Source: Aquabacterium sp. (GTDB taxonomy: Bacteria; Pseudomonadota; Gammaproteobacteria; Burkholderiales; Burkholderiaceae_C). From it: a stretch of DNA of 36,402 nt. Shown here piece by piece: positions 6,041-14,352 of the stretch. The translations under genes and the position numbers were made by a program. The notes under the pieces were generated by a model. It was given only the letters and a program-made list of their open reading frames with translations. It ran no database searches and had not been told where the DNA came from. Position 1 is the first letter of the stretch; the number at the start of each line of letters is the position of its first letter. The stretch spans positions 1 through 36,402 of the forward strand of contig NZ_SCTN01000293.1 of the NCBI RefSeq assembly GCF_004297345.1, written 5' to 3'.

Positions 6041-8626
6041 GTGAACCAGACCGTACGTCTCCATCGTGACGACCATTCGCGTCGTGACACGGGTGAACCC
6101 GTGCGCGCCGCCGCGCCTGATTCGGCCGAAGCGGTTCTGGCACATGGCCACACCTGGTTACGCTTCCCACGTGCGCTGGAGGCCGAATTCGCCGCAGAAA
6201 CGCTGGAGCCCCGCCGCAAGCTGCTGACCTTTTGCGCCGTGCTGGGCTGCCTGGGCGTGGTCCTGGGCTCGGGCAACGTGAACGAGGCCACCCCGGAGAT
6301 CGCCGCCTTTGTCTGGCGATTGGTCTGGATCTGGATGGGCTTTGCCTTTCTCGCCTTGGTCAGCATCTGGCTGTGCCCTGTCAAGCTGCGTCGCGGCTGG
6401 CACGCTGAAGGCCTTACGGCACTGCTGGGCACTGCCATGGCGCTGTTGGTGGCCTGGATGGGCTCGGCCAGTCAGGCCGATACAGCCATCACTCACTCCG
6501 CGATGGCCGCCATACCCGTGATGTATGCCTGCATCGCGGCGCGATTGCGTTTTTACTGGTCCTTGAGTTCGGCGCTGATCACCTTTGTCTACTACATCCT
6601 GACGGTCAAAGGGCACACACCCTCTCAGGCGCAGATCGCGCAGGGACTCACACACCTGATCGCCATGAGCTATGCCTTTGGCCTGCTGGCGAACTACGCC
6701 TTCGAGCACCGGGAGCGTCGCAACTGGCTGTTGCGCCGGGTCGAAGCGCAGCAGCGGGAGACCTTGTTGCAGACGTCGGCCCAACTGCATCAGTTGTCCA
6801 CGCTGGATCCGCTGACAGGCTTGCCCAACCGCCGTCAGTTCGATCTCAATTTGCAGCAAGCCATCGATCAGGCCACGTGGACACAAAAGCCGCTGGCCTT
6901 GCTGACCGTCGATGTGGACTACTTCAAGCGCTTCAATGACAGCCACGGGCACCCCGCCGGTGACACCTGCCTGATCGACATATCGCGCACGCTGGCCACG
7001 CAAGCTCTGATCCATGGCGGCACGGCCGCGCGGTTGGGTGGCGAGGAATTCGCCATCATCCTGCCAGGGCTGGATCCGGCGCTGGCACGCCAGGCCGGTG
7101 AACGTGTGTGCCAGGCCGTGGCGGCGGCACGCATGCCGCATCGCGATTCACCCGTGGCAGCGCACGTCACCATCAGCGTTGGCATGGCGGTGTGGCAGGC
7201 CGATGTGCGCGACACGCCCGCCAGCCTGCAAGAAAGGGCCGATCGCGCGCTCTACCAGGCCAAAGCGAGCGGCCGCAACCAGCTGTGTGTGGCTCCTGTT
7301 GCCACGGCGCTGACCGAGCCCAGCCCCATCCACGTGGCCAGCCCACCGCTCCCCGAGCGCTGGGTGAATTCGATGAGCGAGGAAGAAGATCAGGCCGAGG
7401 AAGACGAAGCCCTCTGCCAGCAAACGCTGGAAAGCCAATTCCTCAAGCTGCGCTTTCCTGAACCGCTGGAATCTGCCTACATCGCACACCATGCACAAGC
7501 CCGCCGCAAGCAGTTGGCCATCACAGCGCTGGTCGGGCTGCTGATTTTCAATGTGTCAGCCATTGCCAACCGCTCGATGTTTGGCGACATCAGCGACTCG
7601 GCCATGGATTACCTGGTGTGGCTGAGCGCTTGCGTGCTTTTCCTGCACACCTTCGCCTGGTTCGCCCATCGCCCGCTGTGGCGTGAAACGCTCTACAGCC
7701 TGAGCACGGCCATCGTTGCGCTGGTATCAACATGGGTCTTCTCCAAGAGCCAGCTCACGTCTACGTTGAGCTATTCGATCTGCCTGATGCTGATCCCGAT
7801 GTTCTCAGGTGTGGCGGCGCGCCAGCCCTTCTGGTTCACTTGCGTGCCTTCGTTGATCACGTCAGCTGCGGTGGCGCTGCTGCTCAAGCCCAACGGGCAC
7901 ACGCAAGAGATCGTGTATGGCGACAACCTGTTCATGATCGTCAACAACATGGTCTACACGCTGATCCTGGCCTATACGCTGGATCATGGCGCGCGCAAGG
8001 CCTGGCTGCTGGCCCGCATTGACAGGTTGCAACAGGGCGCCTTGCTGGCCGCCAGCCAGCGCCTGAAGGCATTGTCCGTGGTGGACCCACTCACGGGCAT
8101 CTGCAACCGCCGTCAGTTCGAAGACGATCTGGACCGTATCTGGCACGAATGCCTCGAAGATCGGCGCCCGCTGGGCATGCTCATCATCGATGTAGACCAC
8201 TTCAAGCTCTACAACGACAGGCTGGGCCACCTGGCCGGCGATGAATGCCTCAAGCTGGTCGCCACGCTCATGAGCAAGACCGCGCAAGCCGACAAAGGCC
8301 TGGCGGCGCGTCTGGGTGGCGAAGAGTTCGGCGTGCTGCTGCCCGGCGGCTCATTGAGCGATTCGCTGCAACTGGCCGAGCGCATCCGCCTGACGATCAG
8401 CCAGGCCTGCATTGCGCATGATTACGCGCCCCCGCGGCACGTGACGGTCAGCATCGGTGTGGCCAGCCTGATCCCGCAGGAGGGCATGGACCGCATTTCC
8501 TTGTTCGCCACGGCAGACAAGGCCTTGTACGAGGCCAAGCGCACGGGGCGCAACAAGGTGCTGGGCCCGAAGGGCGCGGACGTGGCCCACCGGTCGAGCG
8601 CACGATCCCCTGTTGATCAGGCCTGA
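6041..8626 (+). CDS. Tandem-duplicated membrane diguanylate cyclase (two GGDEF modules)
   Basis: An 861-residue protein that should make cyclic di-GMP from two GTP. It is two copies of one architecture. Residues about 40-215 form a multi-pass membrane domain and about 225-410 a GGDEF domain; about 450-655 and 660-850 repeat the pattern. Each membrane copy opens with a matching FPxxLE...RRK block. The cyclase motifs are DPLTGLPNRR, DVDYFKRFND and GGEEF (about 333-337) in the first copy, and DPLTGICNRR, DVDHFKLYND and GGEEF (about 758-762) in the second. Both active-site loops are intact, so both may be catalytic and could dimerise within one chain. Neither copy has the RxxD inhibitory I-site just before GGEEF, so product inhibition is probably absent. 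The start is a GTG at 6041. An acidic linker (SEEEDQAEEDE) joins the halves. Confidence 0.9.
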   Translation: MNQTVRLHRDDHSRRDTGEPVRAAAPDSAEAVLAHGHTWLRFPRALEAEFAAETLEPRRKLLTFCAVLGCLGVVLGSGNVNEATPEIAAFVWRLVWIWMGFAFLALVSIWLCPVKLRRGWHAEGLTALLGTAMALLVAWMGSASQADTAITHSAMAAIPVMYACIAARLRFYWSLSSALITFVYYILTVKGHTPSQAQIAQGLTHLIAMSYAFGLLANYAFEHRERRNWLLRRVEAQQRETLLQTSAQLHQLSTLDPLTGLPNRRQFDLNLQQAIDQATWTQKPLALLTVDVDYFKRFNDSHGHPAGDTCLIDISRTLATQALIHGGTAARLGGEEFAIILPGLDPALARQAGERVCQAVAAARMPHRDSPVAAHVTISVGMAVWQADVRDTPASLQERADRALYQAKASGRNQLCVAPVATALTEPSPIHVASPPLPERWVNSMSEEEDQAEEDEALCQQTLESQFLKLRFPEPLESAYIAHHAQARRKQLAITALVGLLIFNVSAIANRSMFGDISDSAMDYLVWLSACVLFLHTFAWFAHRPLWRETLYSLSTAIVALVSTWVFSKSQLTSTLSYSICLMLIPMFSGVAARQPFWFTCVPSLITSAAVALLLKPNGHTQEIVYGDNLFMIVNNMVYTLILAYTLDHGARKAWLLARIDRLQQGALLAASQRLKALSVVDPLTGICNRRQFEDDLDRIWHECLEDRRPLGMLIIDVDHFKLYNDRLGHLAGDECLKLVATLMSKTAQADKGLAARLGGEEFGVLLPGGSLSDSLQLAERIRLTISQACIAHDYAPPRHVTVSIGVASLIPQEGMDRISLFATADKALYEAKRTGRNKVLGPKGADVAHRSSARSPVDQA

Positions 8627-8630
8627 TCGC

Positions 8631-8990
8631 TTACTTGCCGCCCTTGCCCGACTTGGCTTCGGCGCTGGCCAGCATGTCCTTGGCCGACAGACCTGCGAAC
8701 AAGGCGGCGGCGCGGGTCTTGATTTCCAGCAGTTCGTCGGCAGTCACCGAGTACTGGCCAGTGGTCTTGTTGACCTTGATGCCAAACTCGACGTCCTTGC
8801 CGTTGTTGGACAGAATGCCGCTGGTGAACTCGTAATCCTCGCTGTCCACGGGCAGACCTTCGACATCGGCGTCATAGTCTTCGTAGGTCACGCGGTGGAT
8901 TTCGCCGCTGGCCAAGTCCAGCAAGCCGGTGCCGTTGATCACCTCGTCGGACAGTTCATCGGCAATCTTGATCGGTACTTTCAAATCCAC
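8631..8990 (-). CDS. Hypothetical protein, acidic, 119 aa
   Basis: I choose the GTG at 8990 (VDLKVPIKIADELSDEVI), preceded by GGGAGG at ideal spacing; the longer ORF adds a basic, unlikely N-terminus. The first two thirds are beta-rich and acidic (GLLDLASGEIHRVTYEDYDADVEG...), followed by a strand pattern ending in YSVTADELLEI. The protein finishes with a helix and a short Lys/Gly tail (KSGKGGK). There is no signal peptide or membrane segment. I do not recognise the family and offer no function. Its stop is only four bases from the convergent cyclase stop. It is divergent from the SMC-like operon, sharing a 108-base intergenic region with a perfect inverted repeat. Confidence 0.72.
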   Translation of the reverse strand: MDLKVPIKIADELSDEVINGTGLLDLASGEIHRVTYEDYDADVEGLPVDSEDYEFTSGILSNNGKDVEFGIKVNKTTGQYSVTADELLEIKTRAAALFAGLSAKDMLASAEAKSGKGGK

Positions 8991-9028
8991 AACAGACCTC
9001 CCTTCACGCAAAAGGGCTCGATTCTGGC

Positions 9029-9045
9029 ACGCCACGGCGTGGCGT
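9029..9045. repeat. Inverted repeat in the hypothetical/SMC-operon divergent region
   Basis: ACGCCAC and GTGGCGT form a perfect 7-base inverted repeat around GGC. It sits 54 bases upstream of the first SMC-like gene and 39 bases from the divergent GTG start. It could be an operator for either gene or a small hairpin in a leader. No regulator is known. Confidence 0.4.
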
Positions 9046-9098
9046 CTGCCTCCAACCGGTAAAAACCCGCCCTCGGGCTTCCGGCACAATCACCCCCC

Positions 9099-10616
9099 AT
9101 GACCGAGGCGCCCCAGACAGAACAACACGAGAGCACCAGCTTCGAGGGCTACTTCCGAGATGCGGACTTCGCCCCTGCCCAGCCCCTGGCCTGGGCCCTG
9201 AGCCAGCGCCAGGAACTGCTGGAAGCGCTACGCGGCCTGTTCAATGGCCCGCAAGCCATGGTGCAACTGCGCCTGTGGTGCTTCATGGAACTGGCCGCCC
9301 AGCCTCAGGCTCGCCTGTCTCGCGACGATGTGAACCGTTTGTTCCACGCCGTGCTGCCAGACGCACTGGAAACCGTGCTCAAGCGCCTGCGAGACATCAA
9401 TCTACTCGTGTGGGACGCCACCCCGCAGGACTACCACCTATCACCCCTGGCGCAGCAGGTACATGGCCTGCTGGCCCCGATGACCACACCGCCAGCGGCC
9501 GAATACGACGACATGGCCGCGCTGCTGTCGCAAGTGGCGGGTGCCCAGCAACTGGGCCTGGTCAGCACCAACCAGCTCAAGCACCTGCACGCGCAACTGG
9601 CTCGCCTGCACGACGAGTTCTCGGATGCGATTGCCAGCGGATCGGAGTCGCGCCTGCGCGTGGCCCAGCCTCGCTTTGACCGCGCTCTGGAACTGGTGGA
9701 CCGCGCCGGCCAGGCGCTGACCGCGCTGATCCGCGCCGAGCACGAAGACCCGCGCCTGGAGCGCGAAGCCCGTGCCATCGGCCAGGAACAGGCCCGCCTG
9801 CTGTCCATGGCCAGCCAGTTCACCCGTGCGCTGCAACAGGCCGATCGCCAGCGCGTGACGCTGGGCTCCACCGGCTTGACCACATCCGATGTGCGTGCCT
9901 GGCTGCAACGCCACCCCGCGCTGTGGGAAATCATGGGCGAGGCACTAGCAGTGCCCGTGCGGCCAGTGATGGTCAGCCAGCACGATCTGGTCGACGTGGC
10001 CGAAGGCGAGTTCGAACGCGATCGCCCCGTTTCGCAAGGCCTGGCTGGCCTGCCACCGCCCGCAGAGGCCGCTCACGGCACGCTGGACACGCTCAGCCTG
10101 CCGCCTGAACTGGGCAACCTGATCAGCCTGCTGGATCGCTGGTCAGAAATGGCCACGGAAGAAGCCGCCCAGCGCGCGGCGGCTCAAGCAGCTGGTGAAG
10201 CGCCGAATCCTGATGCGCCTGCACCCGGCACCCGGCCCCTGTCCGACGCCATTCTGGGCGGGCGCTTTGCCCAAGCCGCCTACCGCATGCAGCTCATGCC
10301 GCTGGTGGGCGACGCCCAGGCCCAGACCCTCAAAGGGCTCACGGGCGATCTGGCACGTGCGCCCTGGCAATGGCAGTTCAAGGCGCAGCACATCAGCGCT
10401 GCCGATGAAGCCGTGGCGCTCGTCAGCGACGGCTTCGTTCAGCCGATCCAGTTCGATGCACAGGGCCACCCCATCCCCCTGCCTGCGGATGACCGTGAGC
10501 CCATCGTGCTGATGCCCAGGCCCGCGCCTGAAGCCAAGCCCAAAGGTCGCGCCAAAAGCGCCAAGGCAACGGCGCCCTCCAGCGCCCCACAGAATCCCAA
10601 CGAAGCCCAAGCATGA
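9099..10616 (+). CDS. MksF/JetA-like kleisin subunit of an SMC-like complex
   Basis: A 505-residue cytoplasmic protein that I assign to the MksF/JetA (MukF-like) kleisin class, mainly from its place and fold pattern. Residues about 40-125 look like a winged-helix domain (LRGLFNGPQAMVQLRLWCFMEL...ETVLKRLRDINLLVWD). Residues about 150-245 are long amphipathic helices (LKHLHAQLARLHDEFSD...LIRAEHEDPRLEREA), as expected for the SMC-contacting bundle. A Pro/Ala-rich linker then leads to a C-terminal domain and a basic tail. The gene begins the operon; its stop overlaps the next ATG (ATGA). No Shine-Dalgarno precedes the ATG, but CACAAT lies eight bases upstream, compatible with a leaderless or nearly leaderless message. 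Sequence similarity to known MksF is weak by eye, so the assignment is partly contextual. Confidence 0.66.
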   Translation: MTEAPQTEQHESTSFEGYFRDADFAPAQPLAWALSQRQELLEALRGLFNGPQAMVQLRLWCFMELAAQPQARLSRDDVNRLFHAVLPDALETVLKRLRDINLLVWDATPQDYHLSPLAQQVHGLLAPMTTPPAAEYDDMAALLSQVAGAQQLGLVSTNQLKHLHAQLARLHDEFSDAIASGSESRLRVAQPRFDRALELVDRAGQALTALIRAEHEDPRLEREARAIGQEQARLLSMASQFTRALQQADRQRVTLGSTGLTTSDVRAWLQRHPALWEIMGEALAVPVRPVMVSQHDLVDVAEGEFERDRPVSQGLAGLPPPAEAAHGTLDTLSLPPELGNLISLLDRWSEMATEEAAQRAAAQAAGEAPNPDAPAPGTRPLSDAILGGRFAQAAYRMQLMPLVGDAQAQTLKGLTGDLARAPWQWQFKAQHISAADEAVALVSDGFVQPIQFDAQGHPIPLPADDREPIVLMPRPAPEAKPKGRAKSAKATAPSSAPQNPNEAQA

Positions 10617-11458
10617 GTTCCCATCTCGACGACGCAGCCCTGCTGGCTGCCGAACTGCTCGCGCGCCGCTGGTTGCCGCGCCAACACCCAAAGGTCAAGC
10701 GCGCCCTGATTGACGCCGACCTGTGGCAAGCCACGCAAGATCGCCTGGCCCAGGTCGGCCTGCGCCTGATCGACAACATCTACGCCGACCACGTCAGCGT
10801 GGCCTTGCTGCGCCCAGCCGAAACCGCCGTGTTCGGTGAAGCCGGCCTCAACAGCCACAACAACATCGACCTGCCGCGTGATGCCGTCTCGCTGCTGGTG
10901 ATCCTGTGGGCGCTGATCATCCTGCCCAAGCGTGAACGCCAGGCCGCCCGAGCCAACCAGGCCGAGGGCAACGACCAGAACGACATGTTCGGCAAGGACA
11001 AGCCCATCCCCACGGCCGCCAGCGTGAGCCCCCTGGTGTCGTACAAGGCCCTGCTGGCCGACTTCGGCATCCAGCTGGGCAAGAAGACCCGCCTGGACAC
11101 CAACCTCAAGCGCCTCGAAAACCACGGCTTCATCATCCGCAAGGGTGAGGACGTGGCCGAAGGCCCGCTGCTGGATTTGCTGCTCGACTACGACGCGCTC
11201 GCGCCCCGCATCCTGCAAGGCGCACTGGGCGACGTACTGGCCCAGGCCAAGGAGTTGGTGGGCAACCTGCCGCTGGCGATCACGCAGCCGCCACTCGAAG
11301 AGTTTGAAGAGATCCCGGAAGACGAGATCGAGATGGAAGCGCACGTGGCAGCGCCCGCGCCGACGCCCATCCATGTCGATGCGGCGCCGGCCTCCGACAC
11401 GGCCCATAACGACGCCGCTGATGACGCTGCGCCCCACGCTTCACCCGACCAGGCCTGA
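10613..11458 (+). CDS. MksE/JetB-like subunit (DUF4194-like)
   Basis: A 281-residue soluble protein, translationally coupled to the upstream kleisin-like gene by ATGA and followed six bases later by the SMC-like ATPase. In MukBEF, MksBEF and Wadjet complexes the E/JetB protein is a paired winged-helix subunit that binds the kleisin. Here residues about 40-110 (LAQVGLRLIDNIYADHVSVALL) and about 140-200 (SYKALLADFGIQLG, LDTNLKRLENHGFIIRKGED, PLLDLLLDYDAL) match that two-winged-helix outline. The 'LKRLENHGFI' turn is the clearest signature. After about residue 205 come an acidic segment and a low-complexity Ala/Pro/Asp tail to the C-terminus, longer than in typical MksE. The identification depends on the gene order F-E-B and is moderately confident. 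Confidence 0.68.
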   Translation: MSSHLDDAALLAAELLARRWLPRQHPKVKRALIDADLWQATQDRLAQVGLRLIDNIYADHVSVALLRPAETAVFGEAGLNSHNNIDLPRDAVSLLVILWALIILPKRERQAARANQAEGNDQNDMFGKDKPIPTAASVSPLVSYKALLADFGIQLGKKTRLDTNLKRLENHGFIIRKGEDVAEGPLLDLLLDYDALAPRILQGALGDVLAQAKELVGNLPLAITQPPLEEFEEIPEDEIEMEAHVAAPAPTPIHVDAAPASDTAHNDAADDAAPHASPDQA

Positions 11459-11464
11459 TCCCCG

Positions 11465-14281
11465 ATGTTTCACCTGCAAAGCCTCGAACTGCTGCACTGG
11501 GACTACTGCCAGCGCCTGACCCTGCCGCTGGACGGCGCCATCATCACGGTGGCCGGCCCCAATGGCTCGGGCAAGACCACCCTGCTGGATGCCATGCGCA
11601 CCCTGCTGGGCCTGGATTGCTCGGGCGGCCGCAACTACAAGACCTACGCCCGCCACGCCAATGCCGACAGCGCCTGGCTGCGCGCCACGGTGGACAACCG
11701 CCCACGCAACCGCCAGTCGTCCAACCGGCCCTTTGCCCGCTGCCTGCTGTACAGCGATGTGGTGACACTGGCCTGCCGCATCGACCGCAATGGCGGTGAC
11801 TGGACGCGCCGCTACATCATGGTCGAAGGCGATGTGAGCGTGGAAGAGCTCATCGAGCGCGGCGACCGTGACTGGCTGGGCATCGACAACTGGCGCCGCC
11901 GCCTGGAAGGTGCCGGCCTGAGCCGCGCCATCGCCAAGGTGCTGGCACTGGAACAAGGCCAGACCGACCGCCTGTGCGAATACAGCCCCAAGGAACTGCT
12001 GCGCCTGGTGTTCGACGTGTTCGGTGACCAGGACGTGCTCGACCGCTACGACGAAGCCCGCAACCACCAGAAGCAACTGCTGCAGGAAGTAGAAGCCGCC
12101 GAGCGCGAGCTGTCGCATGGCAAGGCCCAACGCGCCGAGCTTGAATCGCGCGTCAACAACTACCGCCAGTGGGAACTCAAGTGCCAGGAGCGCGAAACAC
12201 TGGGCACCGAAGTCGTGCCTGTGCTGAGCAACTTCGAGACCCGCAAGAGCCTGGCCGGCAAGCTGCGTGATCTGCACAAGCAACGGCTGCAATCATCGGA
12301 TGACCGCCGCCAGCATGGCCAGGTCAAGGCCGACTTGCTGCAACGCCTGCAGGACCAGACCGACACCGCGACCCGCGTGGAAGAGCTGGAAGCGCAAGTG
12401 CGCAGTGCCCGCCGCGTGCAGGAAGAAGCCCGCGATGCCGAGCGCCCCATCGAACTGCTGGTCAAGCGCGCCGACGAACTGCAAGGCCTGGCCAGCGTGG
12501 AAGGTGATGCGCAACAGCTCACCCAACGCATCCAGGAACTCAGCGACCACAAGCAGCAGCTGTCCACACAATGGCAGCGCCTCAAAGACCAGCGCGACGA
12601 GGCCCAGCGCGCCCTGAACGGCCTGCAAGGCCAGCGCCTGGCCCCGCCCCCGCCTGAAGTGCAGCGCTTCCGACGCACGCTGGATGAGGCCGGCATCGCC
12701 CACCATGTGGTGAGCGACATCATCGAGATCACCGACGAGAAATGGCGCGCCGCCGCCGAAGGCGTGCTGCGCGGCAGCCGCTGGGTGGTGGTGCTCGATC
12801 GCCCCTCGCAAGAGGCCCAGGCCATGGCCCTGGCCGAGAAGGAGCGCTTCCGCCACTACATCGTGGCCGAGGCCGAAGACGCGCCGGCCAAGCCCGATGC
12901 CGACAGCCTGCTGGCCGTGCTCAAGATCAGCGCCCCGGCCCCGCACTGGTTGCTGCGCCAGCTGGAAAACATCCAGCGCGTGGCCAGCACGGAAGCCGGC
13001 GTGAAGATCCGTGGCGAGTGGATCACGCCCGATGCCTATCACCGCGATGGCCGTGGCGGCCGCTCTGTCTGGGTGGACCCGAGCCAGTACCAGTTCGGCG
13101 CCAGCGCCGTGGCCTCACGCCGCACCTCGATCGACAACCGCCTGGCTCAGCTCGATGAAGAGATGACGCGCATCGTGCGCGACCAGGCCTTCTTCGATCG
13201 CCAGCTGCAGGATGCCCGCAAGGCCGCGCAAGGCTTCACGGCCGCCGCCGAACTGGCCGAGCGCGAAGCCGAATTCAGCGAAGCCCGACGCCAGTTGCCC
13301 ATGCTCAAGCAGGCCCGCGCCGAAGCCGGCGAGCGCTGGCAGCAGACGGAAGCGCAACTCAAGCGTGCCGTGGTCGAGCAGACCAACGCGCAGCATGCCT
13401 ACAGGCAGGCGCAGGAACGCCTGGCCCACATCGAACAACGCAGCGCCCAGCACGAGCGCGAATGGCAGCAACGCTTTGATGACGTGATGGCGCAGGCCGT
13501 GATGTCACGCGAGGTGAAGCTGCAGATGCCACGCCACTGGCGCACGCCCGAGCGCATCAAGGACATGCAAGGCCACTACGGCAACGCCACCCAGGCCCGC
13601 CTGCGTGCCGAAGCCGTGGAGCGTGAACTCAATGAAGGCAAGTGGGAAACCGACCCCACGGTGATCGAACAGCTCACGCTGATGAACGCCAACGTGCTGC
13701 GCCAGGAAGACGAGCTCAACCAGCGCAAGTCGAGCAATGCCGCCGCCGCCATCGCCGTGGACAACGCCCGTGAGCGCTACACCGACGTGCTCAAGGTCAC
13801 GGTGCGCCGCTACCGCAAGAACATCATCGAACTGGGCCAACTGGCTGGCGTGGAAGTCAACGCCGAGTTGCCGCACCTCGATGGCGACGACACGCAACTG
13901 CGCCAGGCCGAACTGCGCGTGCACTTCAACTTCGACGGCAAGGGCAGCATCGGCCTGAACGACGGCGAAGCCTCCGGTGGCCAGCAGGTGATCAAGTCAC
14001 TGATCCTGCTGGTGGGCCTGATGAAGGACGACGAAACGCCTGGCGGCTTCGTGTTCATCGACGAACCCTTCGCTCACCTGGACGTGCGCAACATCCAGCT
14101 GGTCGGCCACTTCCTGCGTTCCACGCGTGCACAGTACGTGCTGACCACACCGATCACGCACAACGTCGAGGTGTTCGAGCCGGCGGACGTGACCCTGGTC
14201 ACGTCCAAGAAGCCCAAGGGTGCGCGCTGGGCGCCGCCGATTGGGGTGCTGCAGCGCCGTGTGGCGCCTGAGGTTTACTGA
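11465..14281 (+). CDS. MksB/JetC-like SMC ATPase
   Basis: A 938-residue SMC-like ATPase expected to form the DNA-loading motor with the two preceding proteins. The N-terminal head carries Walker A GPNGSGKT (31-38). A long coiled coil follows from about 190 to 400. Residues about 405-540 form a globular hinge-like domain (VQRFRRTLDEAGIAHHVVSDIIEITDEKW ending near SQYQFG). A returning coiled coil runs to about 745. The C-terminal head has the signature ASGGQQ near 836, Walker B FVFIDEP near 861 with its catalytic Glu, and the D-loop AHLD. Head motifs are complete, so it should be active. Its length suits MksB (about 940) rather than SMC or MukB. It ends 23 bases before a strong hairpin terminator. 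RecN or SbcC-like relatives are less likely given the partners. Confidence 0.83.
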   Translation: MFHLQSLELLHWDYCQRLTLPLDGAIITVAGPNGSGKTTLLDAMRTLLGLDCSGGRNYKTYARHANADSAWLRATVDNRPRNRQSSNRPFARCLLYSDVVTLACRIDRNGGDWTRRYIMVEGDVSVEELIERGDRDWLGIDNWRRRLEGAGLSRAIAKVLALEQGQTDRLCEYSPKELLRLVFDVFGDQDVLDRYDEARNHQKQLLQEVEAAERELSHGKAQRAELESRVNNYRQWELKCQERETLGTEVVPVLSNFETRKSLAGKLRDLHKQRLQSSDDRRQHGQVKADLLQRLQDQTDTATRVEELEAQVRSARRVQEEARDAERPIELLVKRADELQGLASVEGDAQQLTQRIQELSDHKQQLSTQWQRLKDQRDEAQRALNGLQGQRLAPPPPEVQRFRRTLDEAGIAHHVVSDIIEITDEKWRAAAEGVLRGSRWVVVLDRPSQEAQAMALAEKERFRHYIVAEAEDAPAKPDADSLLAVLKISAPAPHWLLRQLENIQRVASTEAGVKIRGEWITPDAYHRDGRGGRSVWVDPSQYQFGASAVASRRTSIDNRLAQLDEEMTRIVRDQAFFDRQLQDARKAAQGFTAAAELAEREAEFSEARRQLPMLKQARAEAGERWQQTEAQLKRAVVEQTNAQHAYRQAQERLAHIEQRSAQHEREWQQRFDDVMAQAVMSREVKLQMPRHWRTPERIKDMQGHYGNATQARLRAEAVERELNEGKWETDPTVIEQLTLMNANVLRQEDELNQRKSSNAAAAIAVDNARERYTDVLKVTVRRYRKNIIELGQLAGVEVNAELPHLDGDDTQLRQAELRVHFNFDGKGSIGLNDGEASGGQQVIKSLILLVGLMKDDETPGGFVFIDEPFAHLDVRNIQLVGHFLRSTRAQYVLTTPITHNVEVFEPADVTLVTSKKPKGARWAPPIGVLQRRVAPEVY

Positions 14282-14303
14282 GCGATTGAGCTACTGCGTG
14301 ATT

Positions 14304-14329
14304 CAAGAGGCCCTCGCAAGGGCCTCTTG
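14304..14329 (+). terminator. Hairpin terminator after the SMC-like operon
   Basis: A perfect 11-base stem (CAAGAGGCCCT / AGGGCCTCTTG) closes a CGCA loop just after the last gene of the SMC-like operon. Only a few T residues follow, so it may act in both directions, also serving the LysR gene that ends at 14353 on the other strand. Its position closes the operon and argues against a fourth co-transcribed gene. Confidence 0.75.
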
Positions 14330-14352
14330 TCATGGCGCATCAACTTGATGCA

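What the first reader, a model, noticed from the sequence alone, without database searches (positions are those of the whole stretch)
9099..14281. SMC-like MksF-MksE-MksB (JetA-B-C order) operon without JetD nuclease
Seen: three overlapping or closely spaced plus-strand genes encoding a kleisin-like protein, a paired winged-helix protein and a 938-residue SMC-type ATPase with all head motifs. The operon ends in a strong hairpin and is followed by an unrelated LysR gene. Known: Wadjet has the order JetA-B-C-D, where JetD (MksG) is the plasmid-cutting nuclease, while MksBEF without G acts in chromosome organisation. Inference: this is either a housekeeping second condensin or an anti-plasmid complex that recruits a nuclease from elsewhere. 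The long acidic, Ala/Pro-rich tail of the E-like subunit and the Lys/Ala-rich tail of the kleisin-like protein look non-standard and could be recruitment surfaces.
Basis: partly seen in the sequence, partly recalled or inferred. Interest (0 to 1): 0.7.

Follow-up and report, generated by a model that had tools for sequence, protein, structure and literature searches.

The report
Plasmid-cutter relative without its nuclease
In an Aquabacterium genome this is a DNA-looping SMC machine (three proteins) of an unmodelled branch of the plasmid-destroying Wadjet systems; its close relatives carry or lack the DNA-cutting fourth gene JetD many times over at the same chromosomal sites, so the family offers a ready-made comparison of how a cutting immune system may turn into a non-cutting chromosome organiser.

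Summary
Observation confirmed. Three plus-strand genes (9099-10616, 10613-11458, 11465-14281) encode a kleisin (model nearest MukF), a tandem winged-helix KITE (model nearest JetB) and a 938-residue SMC ATPase with intact head motifs. No JetD follows; Pfam JetD_C and a family-specific JetD profile find none in the genome. It is a second SMC complex beside Smc-ScpAB (ScpB found). The trio belongs to a distinct family, mostly Burkholderiales, with over 500 relatives. PADLOC, Pfam and NCBIfam recognise neither its kleisin nor its KITE, and it was not found in 199 Pseudomonadaceae genomes. New here: 27 of 103 scored relatives carry JetD directly after the SMC gene, with invariant Toprim acidic residues and PADLOC JetD1 matches. 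On the SMC tree JetD comes or goes at least 13-14 times, often at syntenic sites with a clean 1.2-kb gap; one decayed copy shows loss. JetD and SMC trees are largely congruent. The trio stays under purifying selection where JetD is missing. Most likely this is a Wadjet-derived, non-cutting loop-extruding complex acting on the chromosome (function inferred, untested). The proposed tail 'recruitment surfaces' are not conserved. New variant of a known kind.

The parts
9099..10616 (+). Kleisin subunit (MukF/MksF/JetA-like), 505 aa: N-terminal winged helix, long neck helices, disordered linker, C-terminal cap domain; low-complexity tail after about residue 446
   Evidence: ORF; AlphaFold model mean pLDDT 78.5; Foldseek best PDB hit MukF 9gm7_C, E 5.6e-4, prob 0.98, four of the next four hits also MukF/MukE-MukF chains; no Pfam, PADLOC or NCBIfam hit
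10613..11458 (+). KITE subunit (MukE/MksE/JetB-like), 281 aa: tandem winged-helix core of about 210 residues plus a non-conserved acidic Ala/Pro tail
   Evidence: ORF; model mean pLDDT 62, best hits JetB 8as8_C E 1.2e-6, 8dk1_F, 8dk1_E, then Nse1/Nse3, ScpB and MukE; weak Pfam DUF4194 E 0.03; tail variable
11465..14281 (+). SMC ATPase (MksB/JetC-like), 938 aa: split ABC head, hinge-like domain at about residues 396-560, arms of about 200 residues
   Evidence: Pfam SMC_N 4.8e-14; PADLOC JetC1 best, 1e-22; profile best PDB hit JetC 8dk2_C 1.4e-9; hhalign to JetC middle region 98.6%; 517 relatives in genome contigs
11555..11581 (+). Walker A, GPNGSGKTT (residues 31-39)
   Evidence: invariant apart from P32 in 14 divergent family members
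13967..13987 (+). ABC signature region, EASGGQQ (residues 835-841)
   Evidence: invariant
14048..14083 (+). Walker B and D-loop, FVFIDEPFAHLD (residues 862-873)
   Evidence: residues 863-873 invariant
14304..14329 (+). Hairpin after the SMC stop codon, 11-bp stem and 4-nt loop; likely transcript end
   Evidence: fold -25 kcal/mol, z -4.6; no T-run
14282..14352 (.). Site where JetD-positive relatives carry jetD; here only 71 nt separate the SMC gene from the convergent LysR gene
   Evidence: no JetD in six-frame profile search; jetD sits here in L062, L067, L069 and others

Best explanation
The operon encodes a JetABC-type SMC complex that has lost the nuclease JetD from its own operon, within a Burkholderiales-centred family of Wadjet relatives. 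Kleisin plus KITE bind the heads of an SMC dimer, ATP binding and hydrolysis drive DNA loop extrusion, and with no JetD the completed extrusion does not end in cleavage, so the complex works as a second, dispensable condensin beside Smc-ScpAB. Shown: the three genes, their folds, absence of JetD here, presence of JetD in relatives at the same operon position, repeated presence/absence change, one decayed JetD, purifying selection on the trio without JetD. Inferred from known families: ring assembly, loop extrusion. Inferred and untested: that it acts on the chromosome and not on plasmids, and that most changes were losses.
For: Folds of kleisin and KITE; SMC nearest JetC. A fourth gene of about 400 aa follows the SMC in 27 of 103 scored loci; it matches PADLOC JetD1 at 1e-10 to 4e-16 and keeps the Toprim Glu, DxD and KxEQE motifs. 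The JetD state changes at least 14 times on the SMC tree, 13 forced by well-supported branches. JetD-plus and JetD-minus operons share neighbourhoods in at least six groups, with a gap of about 1.2 kb exactly replacing jetD in L111/L110, L117/L109, L062/L058 and L133/L143. L038 holds a broken jetD remnant. JetD and SMC trees share 16 of 24 splits, Mantel r 0.78, 0 of 2000 shuffles. The trio is under purifying selection in JetD-minus lineages (SMC omega 0.02-0.18). ScpB is present. Five families of the order keep the JetD-minus operon, four of them directly after obg. A published review proposes that P. [quoted passage not shown]
Against: Only one remnant proves the direction of change; equal-cost parsimony slightly prefers gains (14 against 16 steps) and favours a JetD-bearing root only when a gain costs twice a loss or more. 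Presence is patchy: 33 of 41 same-genus genomes and few other genera, which suits an accessory system as well as a condensin. No functional data. The genome is a 626-contig draft.
Confidence: 0.6

Rival explanations
1. Still a defence system: the JetABC core recruits a nuclease encoded elsewhere, or silences and compacts plasmids without cutting, much as Smc5/6 restricts episomes.
For: Same architecture as plasmid-restricting complexes; patchy distribution; many relatives keep JetD; family almost absent from plasmids, with two broken copies in 72,556 records.
Against: No JetD of any kind found in the genome; no conserved replacement gene next to JetD-minus operons; tails that might recruit a partner are not conserved; conserved chromosomal position in JetD-minus groups.
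Confidence: 0.22
2. A decaying leftover of a Wadjet operon: the nuclease went first and the rest is on its way out.
For: Some genomes of the genus lack the operon; the L038 remnant shows decay of jetD.
Against: All three genes intact with invariant motifs and omega well below 1 across 26 JetD-minus Aquabacterium-group sequences.
Confidence: 0.05
3. JetD was gained repeatedly by an ancestral chromosome-organising MksBEF, so the window shows the ancestral state and not a loss.
For: Equal-cost parsimony gives 14 steps with JetD absent at the root against 16 with it present; the JetD-minus operon lies directly after obg in several outgroup families.
Against: JetD and SMC trees agree, including the deepest split, which repeated acquisition from elsewhere would not give; a decayed remnant exists; JetD sits in the same place and frame in both deep clades.
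Confidence: 0.13

Closest known systems
Wadjet type I (JetABCD / MksBEFG)
   Same: Gene order kleisin-KITE-SMC(-JetD); KITE model nearest JetB; SMC nearest JetC; the relatives' nuclease matches JetD1 models
   Different: The window lacks JetD; kleisin and KITE match no PADLOC JetA/JetB model; SMC of 938 aa against about 1100-1200 aa in the JetC proteins examined here
JetD-less MksBEF of Pseudomonas aeruginosa
   Same: Kleisin-KITE-SMC complex without nuclease, alongside Smc-ScpAB
   Different: No member of the window's family in 199 Pseudomonadaceae genomes; a JetD-less trio found there (L150) matches PADLOC JetA1/B1/C1 strongly whereas the window's kleisin and KITE do not. That L150 corresponds to the studied PAO1 MksBEF was not tested
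MukBEF of enterobacteria
   Same: Kleisin fold nearest MukF
   Different: SMC far shorter and only a weak MukB hit (E 0.0077); Smc-ScpAB is present rather than replaced
Lamassu (LmuB SMC-like)
   Same: SMC-like ATPase; PADLOC LmuB hit 1.3e-13
   Different: JetC scores better, and kleisin and KITE partners are present

Membership tests
Wadjet (JetABCD) | JetD Toprim nuclease in the operon | tested here: not met
   Absent from the window and the genome; present in 27 of 103 scored family members
Wadjet (JetABCD) | JetA and JetB recognised by Wadjet models | tested here: not met
   No PADLOC hit for either; hhalign against known JetA/JetB not significant
Wadjet (JetABCD) | JetC-type SMC | tested here: met
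   PADLOC JetC1 1e-22; JetC best PDB hit 1.4e-9; hhalign 98.6% over the middle region. Distant match
Wadjet (JetABCD) | JetB-type tandem winged-helix KITE fold | tested here: met
   Foldseek 8as8_C E 1.2e-6, prob 1.00; model of modest confidence
Wadjet (JetABCD) | Restriction of circular plasmids | not testable with these tools
   needs an experiment
MksBEF (JetD-less MukBEF-like condensin) | MksF-MksE-MksB operon without MksG | tested here: met
MksBEF (JetD-less MukBEF-like condensin) | Coexists with Smc-ScpAB or MukBEF | tested here: met
   ScpB found, E 6.7e-51; Smc and ScpA not searched separately
MksBEF (JetD-less MukBEF-like condensin) | Role in chromosome organisation and segregation | not testable with these tools
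   needs an experiment
MukBEF proper | MukB N-terminal family and size of about 1500 aa | tested here: not met
   MukB Pfam E 0.0077, below cut-off; 938 aa
Rad50/SbcC | Zinc hook CxxC at the coil apex; no kleisin or KITE | tested here: not met
   No CxxC in the 938-aa sequence; kleisin and KITE present

The most novel reading that the evidence does not exclude
One bacterial SMC family has switched many times between a DNA-cutting anti-plasmid machine and a non-cutting second condensin simply by losing (or regaining) one gene at a fixed chromosomal site, so the loop-extruding core is selected for its own sake and JetD is a detachable effector.
Probability: 0.45. Interest if true: 0.75.

Novelty: new variant of a known kind. 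Interest (0 to 1): 0.56.

Why it matters
Reviewers have proposed that chromosome-organising MksBEF descended from plasmid-cutting Wadjet by loss of JetD (PMC10586767), but on one example. This family gives sister pairs with 93-97% identical SMC proteins that differ in the presence of JetD (Bordetella L072/L075, Roseateles L111/L110), some with a precise gene-sized gap. That makes the question of defence-to-condensin conversion directly testable. It also shows a Wadjet-like family whose JetA and JetB are invisible to current defence-system models, so both states are under-counted.

Tried and rejected
Tails as recruitment surfaces: rejected, not conserved. RecN/SbcC grouping: rejected (no zinc hook). 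Identity with P. aeruginosa MksBEF: tested by searching 199 Pseudomonadaceae genomes, none in this family; PAO1 itself could not be named in the collection. Profile-profile comparison of kleisin and KITE with known JetA/JetB gave nothing; structure prediction was needed. A first synteny attempt with a greedy gene caller misread strands in this GC-rich DNA and was replaced. JetD remnants in JetD-minus loci other than L038: weak hits no better than an upstream control. Viral contigs: only Walker-A-level hits. A replacement gene after the SMC gene in JetD-minus loci: none conserved. The gene following in L046-L048 (c59) and the GNAT-like gene between KITE and SMC in L046/L047 are limited to those loci; c59 was not identified.

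Full report
Observation. The hairpin after the operon folds at -25 kcal/mol, z -4.6, but has no T-run. The genome is an Aquabacterium or very close to it: the nearest named relative, L051, has 99% identity.

What the proteins are. Pfam, NCBIfam and PADLOC recognise only the SMC: SMC_N 4.8e-14, PADLOC JetC1 1e-22. Profile search of the PDB puts JetC first, and hhalign links its middle (hinge-like) region to a known JetC at 98.6%. For the first two proteins sequence methods fail (DUF4194 only at E 0.03). AlphaFold models settle them. The kleisin model (pLDDT 78.5) finds MukF first (9gm7_C, E 5.6e-4; other MukF chains next). The KITE model (pLDDT 62) finds JetB of E. coli and PA14 Wadjet (E 1.2e-6 to 1.5e-4), then Nse1/Nse3, ScpB and MukE. 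TM-scores over whole chains are low, so the fold family is established better than the detail.

No JetD here. Pfam JetD_C finds nothing in the genome, DUF4194 finds no other Wadjet, and a JetD profile built from this operon's own family finds nothing in six frames of the window or in the genome. ScpB is present, so Smc-ScpAB is probably the housekeeping complex.

The family. A genome-contig scan found 517 relatives and kept the best 80, nearly all Burkholderiales. 33 of 41 same-genus genomes have the gene, with patchy presence beyond. Outside the order one genus of eight species has it in all eight. No member appeared in 199 Pseudomonadaceae genomes, where instead a JetD-less trio (L150) matches PADLOC JetA1/B1/C1 strongly. 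The window's family is therefore separate from that one. I could not identify PAO1 in the unnamed collection.

JetD in the relatives. While checking the outlying genus I found a fourth gene of 420 aa overlapping the SMC stop codon by 4 bases, with a Toprim-like VENRTSFE and CDPDPAG. Relatives of it follow the SMC gene in many loci. It matches PADLOC JetD1 models at 1e-10 to 4e-16 and a known JetD by hhalign at 93.6%. The catalytic Glu, DxD and terminal KxEQE motifs are invariant across 19 sequences.

Repeated change of state. On the SMC tree of 106 sequences (27 JetD-plus, 76 JetD-minus, 3 unscored) the state changes at least 14 times, 13 of them forced by well-supported branches. JetD-plus and JetD-minus operons share chromosomal neighbourhoods in at least six groups. 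In pairs such as L117/L109 and L111/L110 the flanks are 92-95% identical and jetD is replaced by a gap of exactly its size. L038 has a decayed jetD at the site. JetD and SMC trees share 16 of 24 splits, including the deepest. These points favour loss from a JetD-bearing ancestor; up to 21 losses under a strict loss-only model. The caution is that equal-cost parsimony slightly prefers gains (14 against 16), so direction is inferred, not shown, except in L038.

Function. With JetD gone, the trio remains under purifying selection with values like those in JetD-plus relatives, keeps its chromosomal place within groups, and in several outgroup families sits directly after obg (Obg named by sequence recognition, not by a profile search). 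No conserved gene replaces JetD. The most economical reading is a second, non-cutting SMC complex. Loop extrusion and chromosome organisation are taken from what is known of JetABC and P. aeruginosa MksBEF (PMC10586767, PMC7485682), not shown here. A non-cutting or partner-recruiting defence role remains possible.

Tails. The window's long KITE and kleisin tails are low-complexity; within the genus group tail length runs from 28 to 96 (KITE) and 12 to 88 (kleisin) residues, and the JetD-plus relative L062 has a KITE tail of the same kind. They are not evidence of a recruitment surface.

Novelty. JetD-less MksBEF and its proposed origin from Wadjet are in the literature (PMC10586767). What I did not find described in the searchable open-access library is this family, its invisibility to current JetA/JetB models, and the many-times-repeated presence/absence of JetD at syntenic sites. 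Subscription papers, including the original MksB survey, were not available.

Noticed in passing
L046:10058-10591 and L047:6390-6923: A 178-aa acetyltransferase-like gene sits between the KITE and SMC genes in two loci; other loci (L040, L043) also have extra DNA there.
   Followed up: no
L043, L044, L047, L048 upstream of the kleisin gene: The JetD-minus operon lies directly after an obg-like gene (rplU-like gene further upstream in L043 and L047) across several families, a conserved housekeeping position.
   Followed up: partly
L150:4964-10705: A Pseudomonadaceae JetD-less JetA1/B1/C1 trio that defence-finding models would label Wadjet although no nuclease is next to it.
   Followed up: partly
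JetD genes, e.g. L113/L117, L114/L119, L085/L086: JetD evolves clearly faster than the SMC next to it (72-90% against 91-98% identity).
   Followed up: partly
window 6041-8626: An 861-aa protein with two GGDEF domains, each after its own stretch of hydrophobic segments; looks like a tandem fusion of two membrane diguanylate cyclases.
   Followed up: no
window 8631-9089, minus strand: A small protein of unknown family divergent from the kleisin gene; conserved at the same place in the two nearest relatives (L051, L052) but without a Pfam match.
   Followed up: no
plasmids NZ_LR594690.1 and NZ_LR594663.1 (Variovorax): The only plasmid-borne copies of the SMC gene cover only about half of the query each, as if broken.
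   Followed up: no
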